Assembly: GCA_029559035.1 (NCBI GenBank)
Contig: JAKQCT010000090.1
Coordinates: 1-64,000 of the forward strand
From: Acidobacteriota bacterium
Lineage (GTDB): Bacteria; Acidobacteriota; UBA4820
Direction: 5' to 3'
Length of the DNA stretch: 64,000 nt
Numbering within the stretch: position 1 is the stretch's first letter; each line of letters begins with the position of its first letter. A program made the translations under genes and the position numbers. The notes below the pieces were generated by a model. That model searched no databases and was not told the origin of the DNA. It was given only the letters and a program-made list of their open reading frames with translations. Positions 1-15,120 of this stretch are shown piece by piece.

Positions 1-202
1 CGTTACTATGACAATGTGGTAATCGCATTTATATACACAATGGCTCAGCCGTACATATTCCATTCCTCGATTATACGAAGATATTGGAACTTTATCCATC
101 TCTCGAGCTTACGCTCGGAGAATTTTAGAGGAATGCTTAAACCGGACCAGCTAAAACCCTCCTGTAGAGCCGATCTATCATGTCCGGCTCGTTTCCGTGA
201 GT
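1..202. other. No gene recognised at the window edge
   Basis: I see no supportable gene in this stretch. The short open frame on the plus strand has no recognisable domain and opposes the direction of every other gene. It lies just beyond the hairpin cluster at 203-350, so it may belong to the same decayed mobile-element region. Confidence 0.4.
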
Positions 203-235
203 GAAGCCTCTCCCCAGCCTGAAAACCGGGGCTTC
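203..235 (-). repeat. Hairpin resembling an IS200/IS605 right end (copy B)
   Basis: Read on the minus strand this is GAAGCCCCGG, a short loop, then CTGGGGAGAGGCTTC, an imperfect hairpin. Structures of this form (a GAAGCCCC stem closing with GGGGAG and GGCTTCAC) are typical of the right ends and guide-RNA 3' ends of IS200/IS605 TnpB elements, from my knowledge of the family. No tnpA or tnpB gene is present beside it. It shares the core GAAAACCGGGG (plus strand) with the hairpin at 308-350, so the two look like diverged copies. Confidence 0.4.
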
Positions 236-243
236 AGCCTTTC

Positions 244-281
244 GGCTGATAGGCAAGATCGCAACTCTTGCCATATCAGCC
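244..281. repeat. Long near-perfect inverted repeat
   Basis: Positions 244-258 pair with 266-281 over 15 base pairs with one bulged A at 273 and a 7-base loop. It sits between the two IS200/IS605-like hairpins and is not followed by a T-run in either direction, so it is unlikely to be a simple terminator. It may be part of the same mobile-element end or a small structured RNA. Confidence 0.5.
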
Positions 282-507
282 AAATATTCCTCCGCTTCGC
301 ACCGGGCGGCCATTCCTCCCCGGGTTTGAAAACCGGGGGGATTCCTGGCCGATTTTGTTGAACCTAAACTCCATTTCTTTAAGAATGCCGGTTTTTCCCT
401 AAAGACTTCTTTTCACGGTGATTCTTGCAGTAGTTGCACACACCGACTTCATCGTAGCGGATCCCGGGATAAGTGTCGGACAGAACACACTTCGAGCATC
501 TCAACAT
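276..507 (-). pseudogene. Remnant of an N-acetyl sugar amidotransferase-type gene (zinc-ribbon start only)
   Basis: An ATG at 507 with AGGA about 8 bases upstream opens a 42-codon frame (379-507). Its product has the four-cysteine ribbon CSKC...PGIRYDEVGVCNYC, the N-terminal signature of WbpG/PseA-type PP-loop amidotransferases; the full-length gene at 13981 begins in the same way (ECVRCV...GVCSHC). The frame stops after LGKNRHS. Dropping one A from the A-run at 392-396 gives a continuation GILKEMEFRFNKIG, open to a stop at 276-278, but it runs into the hairpin at 308-350 and the ATPase domain is absent. I read it as a frameshifted, truncated gene. It could instead be a translated stand-alone zinc-ribbon micro-protein. 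Confidence 0.6.
308..350 (-). repeat. Hairpin resembling an IS200/IS605 right end (copy A)
   Basis: The minus strand reads GGAATCCCCCCGGTTTTC followed by AAACCCGGGGAGGAAT, bounded by GGCC on both sides. The shape matches IS200/IS605 TnpB right-end hairpins and repeats the GAAAACCGGGG core of the hairpin at 203-235. It lies directly after the point where homology to a sugar amidotransferase gene is lost, which suggests insertion or deletion at this site. Confidence 0.4.
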
Positions 508-558
508 TTTTTTCCTTTTGCGCAGAGATACTGACGATACGGGACTTTGTCATAATGT

Positions 559-13980: not shown

Positions 13981-15120
13981 TCAGGAATACCTTCGTATCC
14001 GCAATCCGAGTTTTTTCTCGACCCTTGCCTGCGTCGACTTCACGAACTTGTAGAACTTCTCGTCCGAAGGGTAATCCTCCGCCTTCCTTTTCGGCGCTTC
14101 CAGAAGCTTTTCGAATTCATCTTGGGAGAGCCCCAGTTTTTTCCTGAGGTAAAGCTTGTCGTTCTCCAGCTCCCTTTCAGAGTAGAGCGGCTCGGACAAC
14201 TCGACAAGAGCCTCCTCCCGGGTGATCTGCCCCGACAGGATCTGGCTGGAGAGGTGCGGCCTTCTCTTGTCGTAGCCGAACCTGTGGGGAAGGTAGTACC
14301 TCTGGAAGAACTTCGTGAATATCGATTCGCAGTGCTTGCTGCCGTACTCCTTGAAGCCGATCTTCTTCAACTCTTCTATTGCTTCGTCCCTGTTGTACGG
14401 AAGGAAATTGAGAGGCCTGAAAGTCTTCAACCCCTTCGCGAGGGGATAGTAGAAGTAATATTGCCAGAACGATATTATTGGCAGTTTTTTTATAGAGCCC
14501 GAGCCGTGCTTTCTGTTTATGGCCCTGATATTCTTCCCGTCCATCGCCGTGTAGTGCCAGGACCTGGGGAAGATCGCCTCCGTCGCGAGGTTGCCTCCGC
14601 TGAGAACGGTTTTTATCGAGTTCTTCACCGCGTACTTGTATAGGGAGGCGAAGAAAACATGGTCCTGGGGGACATCCTGGTTCGCGACCCCGCTTCTGAG
14701 ATAAGCCAGTTGAAGCTCCCTTATCTCGGGCCAGTCCATGACAACCGTATGTAGGTCCCATCCGCAATGATCAACGATATTTTTTATGTTGCTGACTGCC
14801 GATTCGCTGTTCCAGCCCGCGTCCACGTGTATGACAAGGGGCCTCAGCCCGAACTCCTTCACTTTCAAGGCCATGTAGCTGCTGTCCACTCCTCCGCTCA
14901 ATCCGAGGATGCAATCATATTCCCTTTTCCTGCCGTATTCCCTCATTACCGCTATCTGCCGGGAGAGGGCCTCCGCTCCCCTCTCGTCGGGTTTCCACCT
15001 CGGTTTGACTTCGTTGTCGAAGTAGTGGCAATGGCTGCACACGCCGTTATCGTCAAAAACGATCTCCGGGTCGGTGGTGTCCATTACGCACCTGACGCAT
15101 TCCCTGTGATCAACTGGCAT
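13981..15120 (-). CDS. wbpG: N-acetyl sugar amidotransferase (WbpG/PseA type)
   Basis: 379 residues. The N-terminal four-cysteine ribbon (CVRCV...GVCSHC) precedes the PP-loop ATP pyrophosphatase motif LGLSGGVDSSYMALKV near residue 90. The family converts an acetamido group of a UDP- or CMP-sugar to acetamidino with ammonia supplied by HisH/HisF partners. Those partners follow upstream at 15110 and 15892 with 11- and 1-base overlaps, the classical trio. The substrate is probably UDP-ManNAc3NAc uronic acid, although legionaminic acid is also possible. Confidence 0.9.
   Translation of the reverse strand: MPVDHRECVRCVMDTTDPEIVFDDNGVCSHCHYFDNEVKPRWKPDERGAEALSRQIAVMREYGRKREYDCILGLSGGVDSSYMALKVKEFGLRPLVIHVDAGWNSESAVSNIKNIVDHCGWDLHTVVMDWPEIRELQLAYLRSGVANQDVPQDHVFFASLYKYAVKNSIKTVLSGGNLATEAIFPRSWHYTAMDGKNIRAINRKHGSGSIKKLPIISFWQYYFYYPLAKGLKTFRPLNFLPYNRDEAIEELKKIGFKEYGSKHCESIFTKFFQRYYLPHRFGYDKRRPHLSSQILSGQITREEALVELSEPLYSERELENDKLYLRKKLGLSQDEFEKLLEAPKRKAEDYPSDEKFYKFVKSTQARVEKKLGLRIRRYS

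What the first reader, a model, noticed from the sequence alone, without database searches (positions are those of the whole stretch)
203..350. Two diverged IS200/IS605-type end hairpins and a 15-bp inverted repeat
The minus strand carries two hairpins with the GAAGCCCC/GGAATCCCC...GGGGAG form of TnpB-element right ends, sharing GAAAACCGGGG on the plus strand, with a long inverted repeat at 244-281 between them. No transposase or TnpB gene is present. They may be remnants that trimmed the amidotransferase gene, or guide-RNA-like relics left without an enzyme.
Basis: partly seen in the sequence, partly recalled or inferred. Interest (0 to 1): 0.5.

Follow-up and report, generated by a model that had tools for sequence, protein, structure and literature searches.

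The report
Small IS200/IS605-type element inside an IS1595 relic
A 157-base gene-less piece of DNA with the hairpin ends of an IS200/IS605 "jumping gene" has landed inside the broken remains of another jumping gene; it is a clear example of a known kind of mobile DNA, not a new guide-RNA system.

Summary
The hairpins and the inverted repeat are real. They are parts of one 157-bp insertion (window 201-357) with exact boundaries. An intact copy of the host sequence in the same genome (an IS1595-family transposase gene, C38/L002) shows the empty site: minus strand GGTTCAA|TCACGG against GGTTCAA|[157 bp ending GGCTTCAC]|TCACGG, with no target duplication. The two outer hairpins are the left end and the right end of an IS200/IS605-superfamily element read on the minus strand, not two right ends. 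They match unselected ends of IscB elements (plus strand) and TnpB elements (minus strand), strand-specifically, and do not match IscB coding sequence. A covariance model built only from other elements picks 307-362 as the best site in the 64-kb window (E 2e-5) and the only site at E<=1 in the genome. No TnpB match and no IscB match over the cut-off was found in the genome. Its three Y1-transposase genes lack similar ends nearby. The element fits the published sequence criteria of PATEs (palindrome-associated transposable elements). What directly abuts the truncated amidotransferase gene is the IS1595 relic. A guide-RNA function is not supported. The strong middle hairpin (244-281) is unexplained.

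The parts
201..357 (-). 157-bp non-autonomous IS200/IS605-type element (PATE/MITE); minus strand taken as the transposase top strand
   Evidence: Exact insertion against the intact IS1595 transposase copy in L002/L003, no target duplication
307..351 (-). Left-end hairpin of the element (outer stem CGGCCA/TGGCCG, internal loops TTCCTC and ATTCC on the plus strand, inner CCCC...GGGG stem)
   Evidence: R2 covariance model hit 307-362, 30.6 bits, E 2.1e-5 in 64 kb, only hit at E<=1 in own genome; 298-357 plus against 165 IscB 3' ends z 8.4
358..362 (-). TTCAA, target / left cleavage site kept in the left flank (host DNA)
   Evidence: Present in the empty site; by eye ATGA or GTGA (the reverse complement of TCAT or TCAC) follows the 3' hairpin in 8 of the 11 plasmid IscB loci printed, and TTCAT precedes the left end of TnpB locus L376
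203..235 (-). Right-end hairpin GAAGCC...GGCTTC
   Evidence: 201-246: minus against 83 TnpB 3' ends z 6.1, plus against 162 IscB 5' ends z 6.6, 0 of 200 shuffles each; not unusually stable by energy alone
201..205 (-). TTCAC, terminal bases of the element = right cleavage site
   Evidence: Last bases of the insert before the flank TCACGG; reading as cleavage site inferred from IS608 anatomy (PMC5934647, passages)
244..281 (.). Middle hairpin, 15-bp arms (244-258 / 266-281), 7-nt loop, one bulge; unexplained core of the element
   Evidence: z -7.2; no resemblance to IscB 5' regions, z 0.8 / 0.5; a 21-base stretch of it had no exact match in viral contigs
137..200 (-). 3' end of the IS1595-family transposase gene (right flank of the insert, to the stop codon)
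   Evidence: 62 of 64 bases identical to L002; the L002 gene is NF033547 IS1595 E 9e-43, PF12762 E 3e-29
358..380 (-). Continuation of the same transposase gene on the other side of the insert; similarity stops soon after
   Evidence: 22 of 23 bases identical to L002; ungapped identity then falls (26 of 40, 28 of 60)
400..513 (-). Truncated N-acetyl sugar amidotransferase gene (first 35 positions of the family), next to the IS1595 remnant
   Evidence: TIGR03573 model positions 1-35 of 344, E 4e-9; same-family gene over the cut-off at 14101-15102

Best explanation
Window 201-357 is a non-autonomous mobile element of the IS200/IS605 superfamily (the kind called PATE). It consists of a left-end hairpin, a short core with a strong hairpin, and a right-end hairpin, and carries no gene. 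Most likely it moved, as IS608 and ISDra2 do, as a single-stranded circle cut out and rejoined by a Y1 (HUH) transposase acting in trans, and inserted 3' of TTCAA in the transposase gene of an IS1595-family element, without duplicating the target. Shown: the insertion, its exact ends, the lack of a target duplication, the match of both ends to IS200/IS605-type ends. Searched and not found in the assembly: TnpB, an IscB over the family cut-off. Inferred: the single-strand mechanism, the trans-acting transposase, and that the element is now stranded because no cognate transposase was recognised in this genome.
For: Empty site in the same genome. Ends not selected for any motif, L077 left out, 200 shuffles: 298-357 plus vs 165 IscB 3' ends z 8.4 (0/200); 201-246 plus vs 162 IscB 5' ends z 6.6 (0/200); 246-201 minus vs 83 TnpB 3' ends z 6.1 (0/200); 357-298 minus vs 83 TnpB 5' ends z 2.9 (1/200); against IscB coding sequence z between -1.9 and 0.8. 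Model R2 (16 other elements, 13 pairs, 12 with changes on both sides) gives window 307-362 30.6 bits, next best 11.0; only hit at E<=1 in 2.86 Mb (E 9.7e-4). The same model finds IscB 3' ends not used in training (17 of 80 loci at E<0.001) and TnpB left ends on the opposite strand (16 of 80 loci). TnpB locus L376 reads TTCAT|CAGATATTCGGCGCGGAAACCCCGG against window TTCAA|CAAAATCGGCCAGGAATCCCCCCGG. The four sequence criteria of PATEs (PMC3119063, passages) are met.
Against: Single copy: no second copy found in the own genome, in 198 further genomes, or in phages and plasmids, so mobility rests on one event. No cognate IS200-type transposase was recognised: the regions of the three Y1 matches contain nothing like the element's ends. 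The element ends in TTCAC while the target is TTCAA; pairing of guide and cleavage sites was not tested. The rules that picked the R1 and R2 training rows were written after seeing the window, so their E-values are optimistic; one search used no such rule. Single pairwise scores are weak evidence: L376 scores 55, but L012 and L010, picked only for similarity to the insert, score 54 and 53 and do not look like such ends; 3-kb background stretches of the window reach 35. In one search at most 143 of 2434 first-look candidates of the own genome were scored.
Confidence: 0.9

Rival explanations
1. Guide-RNA relic: the segment is transcribed and once acted, or still acts, as a TnpB or IscB guide RNA without its enzyme.
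For: Its ends resemble those of TnpB and IscB elements, and guide RNAs of TnpB derive from the right end plus flank (PMC8612924, passages). Elements with IscB-type ends and, by eye, an omega-RNA-like 5' part but no gene occur in the same phylum (G059: L284, L286, L287, L290).
Against: Only about 45-60 bases of right end remain, and the middle shows no resemblance to IscB 5' regions (z 0.8 / 0.5). No Rfam family reaches its cut-off; but the same search also gave no match on the IscB locus L077, so this test is weak. No TnpB match and no IscB match over the cut-off in the genome; 0 of 12 other genomes of the order matched TnpB or the D. radiophilus IscB.
Confidence: 0.03
2. REP/BIME-like element mobilised by the resident RAYT-like Y1 transposases (C66, C78).
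For: Three Y1_Tnp matches in the genome, two of them in proteins of about 290 aa with weak helix-turn-helix matches below the cut-offs; hairpins are the usual substrates of such enzymes (PMC6006769, passages).
Against: The regions of the three matches hold nothing like the element's ends (scores 24-32 and 20-28, against window background up to 35 and 36). Two of them (C66, C15) carry GGGGTCAGG repeats not in the insert; C78 has none. The insert is single-copy, while REPs are dispersed in many copies (PMC6006769, passages). A GT[AG]G foot was looked for by eye only.
Confidence: 0.05
3. Ordinary transcription terminators or other conserved intergenic hairpins.
For: The middle hairpin is very stable. 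A consensus scan finds one terminator-like site in the insert, 333-348 plus with tail CCGATTTTGT (2 sites in 1-700, 0.8 expected in shuffles).
Against: The segment is a precise insertion in a transposase remnant; in 198 further genomes the best match to it is 28 bases (at most four candidates scored per genome); its ends match mobile-element ends. The terminator-like site uses half of the left-end hairpin and is near the chance level.
Confidence: 0.03

Closest known systems
PATEs (palindrome-associated transposable elements) of Haloquadratum walsbyi (PMC3119063, passages read)
   Same: Short, no transposase gene, no terminal inverted repeats, near-terminal palindromes like those of IS605-type transposons, no target duplication; mobile elements there often sit inside other mobile elements
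   Different: Here a single copy in a bacterial assembly of 99 contigs; no full-length parent found in the genome; a strong extra hairpin in the core
IscB (ISC) elements, e.g. Deinococcus radiophilus pRadio3 (L077)
   Same: 3' hairpin with TTCCTC and TCC around an inner CCCC...GGGG stem, followed by GTGA; 5' hairpin CCCC...; match on the plus strand
   Different: No iscB gene and no recognisable omega-RNA region in the insert
TnpB elements, e.g. IMGVR_UViG_3300045777_000092 (L376)
   Same: Left end of the same layout with a TTCAT flank and GGAA before the inner stem; right end GAATCCCC...GGGGAG
   Different: No tnpB gene or reRNA scaffold in the insert; right end of L376 less similar
IS608 / ISDra2 (PMC5934647, PMC8612924, passages read)
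   Same: Insertion 3' of a short target that is kept in the left flank, no duplication, subterminal hairpins
   Different: Target TTCAA instead of TTAC or TTGAT; no tnpA

Membership tests
PATE (non-autonomous IS200/IS605-type element) | Palindromes close to both termini, related to IS605-type ends | tested here: met
PATE (non-autonomous IS200/IS605-type element) | No terminal inverted repeats | tested here: met
   Minus-strand termini CAAAATCGG... and ...GGCTTCAC are not inverted repeats of each other (by eye)
PATE (non-autonomous IS200/IS605-type element) | No target duplication | tested here: met
   Filled and empty sites compared
PATE (non-autonomous IS200/IS605-type element) | Too short to encode a transposase | tested here: met
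   157 bp; no ORF of 50 aa or more lies wholly inside it, two (58 and 54 aa) run across its borders
PATE (non-autonomous IS200/IS605-type element) | Several copies or strain-specific insertions showing mobility | tested here: inconclusive
   One copy only, but one exact filled/empty site pair
IS200/IS605 element proper | Y1 tnpA and/or tnpB or iscB gene within the element | tested here: not met
   157 bp, no such gene; in the genome PF07282 0 matches, NF040563 four matches, none over the cut-off, in the 180-266 stretch of the model
IS200/IS605 ends | Guide sequences 5' of each hairpin pairing with the cleavage sites | not tested
   GGAA before the left inner stem and TGAA before the right stem could pair with TTCAA and TTCAC; seen by eye only
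TnpB/IscB guide RNA (omega-RNA, reRNA, HEARO) | Conserved RNA scaffold | tested here: inconclusive
   No Rfam match over a cut-off and no resemblance of the core to IscB 5' regions; but Rfam also missed the IscB locus L077
REP/BIME of TnpA-REP | Multi-copy palindromes with GT[AG]G foot beside the transposase gene | tested here: not met
   Single copy; no similar ends near the three Y1 matches; foot judged by eye only

The most novel reading that the evidence does not exclude
A minimal IS200/IS605-type element whose core is an independent palindrome and which is mobilised across families by resident RAYT-like Y1 transposases, in a genome where TnpB, IscB and a cognate TnpA were not found.
Probability: 0.05. 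Interest if true: 0.45.

Novelty: new member of a known kind. Interest (0 to 1): 0.2.

Why it matters
It gives an exact filled/empty site pair for a gene-less IS200/IS605-type element in a lineage where TnpB was not found (0 of 13 genomes of the order, own included). The comparison also shows, in the sets examined, that the left end of TnpB elements and the 3' end of IscB elements score with one structural model on opposite strands. This helps annotation but is not surprising.

Tried and rejected
Other copies of the insert: own genome; 199 genomes including the own one (at most four candidates per genome scored, the listed other matches are pieces of 16 to 54 query bases, best E 8e-4, taken as chance; the list was cut); phages and plasmids; an exact 21-base stretch of the middle hairpin and a degenerate left-end pattern in viral contigs (no match). 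Other GAAAACCGGGG sites in the genome (C19, C31, C73:64238) were read and by eye lie in protein-coding sequence; no annotation was checked. Rfam: no match at curated cut-offs; the permissive search of 100-450 gave three matches with E 2.2 to 7; the IscB locus L077 also gives none at the cut-off. Resident Y1 transposases as the source of the ends: no similar ends nearby. Folding the DNA behind TnpB genes of relatives was uninformative. One search stopped with an error after two comparisons and was rerun. Model R1 (24 IscB ends) was weak: E 0.018 in the window, 0.8 in the genome; R2, which adds the outer stem, replaced it. R2's rows were chosen by a rule written after seeing the window; of 37 rows found, 16 were used, the others dropped for longer loops or tails or shifted columns; 7 of the 16 come from one genome, G059. 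For the held-out test 80 of the 171 IscB loci held were given to the model. Some TnpB loci are near-duplicates (L361 and L365; L377 to L380), so 16 of 80 counts a few twice. Parent type (IscB or TnpB) could not be decided: both sets match.

Papers: searches; for PMC3119063, PMC4853749, PMC8612924, PMC5934647 and PMC6006769 only the passages shown were read. No claim is made that IscB-type or TnpB-type PATEs are unpublished. That IscB guides lie at the 5' side of the gene is recalled, not looked up.

Full report
What was seen. The first 400 bases of the window, which is also the start of contig C73 of a 2.86-Mb, 99-contig genome, carry three hairpins: 203-235, 244-281 and 307-351. The middle one is far more stable than shuffled DNA (z -7.2); the outer two are not (z -0.4 and -1.5), so energy alone would not have made them noteworthy. 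The whole insert folds better than all of 200 shuffles (z -3.8).

An insertion with an empty site. Searching the own genome with window 150-400 gave matches to contigs C38 and C3. C38 holds an open gene (C38:10206-11030) that is an IS1595-family transposase (NF033547 E 9e-43; PF12762 E 3e-29). The window holds the last 64 bases of this gene to its stop (137-200, 62 identical) and, beyond the hairpins, a further 23 bases of it (358-380, 22 identical), after which similarity stops. On the minus strand the intact gene reads GGTTCAATCACGG; the window reads GGTTCAA, then 157 bases ending GGCTTCAC, then TCACGG. So 201-357 is an insertion, with no target duplication. The transposase copy is itself a remnant: close to the end of the 23-base match begins a gene fragment with the first 35 positions of an N-acetyl sugar amidotransferase (TIGR03573, 35 of 344 positions), a family of which the same contig holds a member over the cut-off at 14101-15102.

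What the insertion is. A weak plasmid match (E 0.04) lay 22 bases behind an annotated iscB gene in Deinococcus radiophilus. I therefore gathered IscB loci (10 further plasmid loci; 80 genome loci; 80 viral-contig loci; 171 with L077) and TnpB loci (80 viral-contig loci, plus some). Without selecting for any end motif, and leaving out the locus that gave the lead, the two ends of the insert were compared with all ends that could be placed (165 IscB 3' ends, 162 IscB 5' regions, 83 TnpB 3' and 83 TnpB 5' regions; 200 dinucleotide shuffles). Segment 298-357 matches IscB 3' ends on the plus strand (z 8.4, 0 of 200), and TnpB 3' (z 4.3, 0 of 200) and TnpB 5' regions (z 2.9, 1 of 200) on the minus strand. 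Segment 201-246 matches IscB 5' (z 6.6, 0 of 200) and IscB 3' ends (z 5.0, 0 of 200) on the plus strand, and TnpB 3' (z 6.1, 0 of 200) and TnpB 5' regions (z 4.0, 0 of 200) on the minus strand. The opposite strands give z from -0.7 to 1.4, and a control of IscB coding segments gives z from -1.9 to 0.8. The remaining comparison, 298-357 plus against IscB 5' regions, gives z 1.8 (10 of 200).

A structural model. Sixteen other elements were aligned (7 of them from one genome, G059); 12 of 13 pairs of the two stems show changes on both sides, and none of 500 shuffles reaches the observed covariation. The model R2 made from them gives the window one strong match, 307-362 plus, 30.6 bits, E 2.1e-5, the next best 11.0 bits. 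In 40 genomes it is the only match in the own genome at E<=1 (E 9.7e-4), and the other 39 have nothing below E 0.1 (at most 143 first-look candidates scored per genome). In 80 of the 171 IscB loci, none of them used in training, 18 have a match at E<0.001, in 17 of them at the 3' side on the plus strand. In 80 TnpB loci it finds full-length matches at E<0.001 upstream of the gene in 16, all on the minus strand (a few loci are near-duplicates). The training rows were picked by a rule written after the window had been seen, so these E-values flatter the match; one search does not depend on that rule. An earlier model, R1, gave only E 0.018 in the window and 0.8 in the genome.

Reading. In these sets TnpB elements and IscB elements share their ends, on opposite strands. 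The insert therefore has a left end (357 towards 298, beside TTCAA) and a right end (246 to 201, ending TTCAC) of the IS200/IS605 superfamily, with the minus strand as the transposase's top strand. Among TnpB loci the best left end by pairwise score is L376 (55), but such single scores are weak: two loci picked only for similarity to the insert score 54 and 53 without looking like such ends. Whether the parent carried tnpB or iscB cannot be told. IS608 and ISDra2 insert 3' of a short target kept in the left flank, without duplication (PMC8612924, PMC5934647, passages), which is what the filled and empty sites show here. The guide-to-cleavage-site pairing (GGAA with TTCAA, TGAA with TTCAC) is my inference and untested.

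Enzymes. TnpB: 0 matches in the own genome and in the other 12 genomes of the order; 8 of 60 genomes searched have it. IscB: with the D. radiophilus protein, long matches only in G059 of 60 genomes; the own genome has one short hit (E 5e-5). With the family model NF040563 the own genome has four matches, none over the cut-off, the best (57 of 175 bits, E 1.6e-15) covering positions 180-266 of 314 only, a stretch also matched below the cut-off in 10 of 14 control genomes. Y1 transposases: three matches in the own genome, one of them (C15) covering positions 6-58 of 121 only; two are proteins of about 290 aa with weak C-terminal helix-turn-helix matches below the cut-offs. Nothing like the element's ends lies in the three regions fetched. 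The element thus looks stranded, though the assembly is 95% complete, so a missed transposase cannot be excluded.

Known kind. PATEs were defined in Haloquadratum as short elements without terminal inverted repeats, with near-terminal palindromes like those of IS605-type transposons, without target duplication and too short for a transposase; mobile elements there tend to hit other mobile elements (PMC3119063, passages). The insert meets the four sequence criteria; being single-copy, it cannot show repeated mobility. Novelty is low: a new member of a known kind. What stays open is the middle hairpin, which does not resemble the IscB 5' region, and the parent. A weak terminator-like site in the left-end hairpin (333-348 plus) is near chance level and does not change this.

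Noticed in passing
G059 (same phylum), loci L284, L286, L287, L290: Elements with IscB-type ends and, by eye, an omega-RNA-like 5' part but no iscB gene in the 420 bases shown upstream; 10 of the 15 full-length R1 matches in G059 are not beside the five long iscB matches.
   Followed up: partly
TnpB loci L301-L380 and 80 of the IscB loci L077-L231: One structural model of IscB 3' ends also recognises left ends of TnpB elements on the opposite strand (16 of 80 loci at E<0.001), as if the two element types carried their nuclease genes in opposite orientation between shared ends.
   Followed up: partly
G000:C66 (L073): A Y1 transposase gene with GGGGTCAGGTCTTTACTTTTAG before it and the same repeat in direct and inverted order behind it.
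   Followed up: partly
G000:C15 (L074:1437-2162): The start of a Y1 transposase reading frame that, after a stretch with a GGCCATGCATTATGCATTG repeat, continues in a frame without similarity to the transposase model.
   Followed up: no
L002:1441-1581 and L003:1-141: The last 141 bases of contig C38 are identical to the first 141 of C3, so the intact IS1595 element probably joins these two contigs.
   Followed up: no
window 14101-15102 and 400-513: A same-family N-acetyl sugar amidotransferase gene over the cut-off lies about 13.6 kb from the truncated one on the same contig.
   Followed up: no
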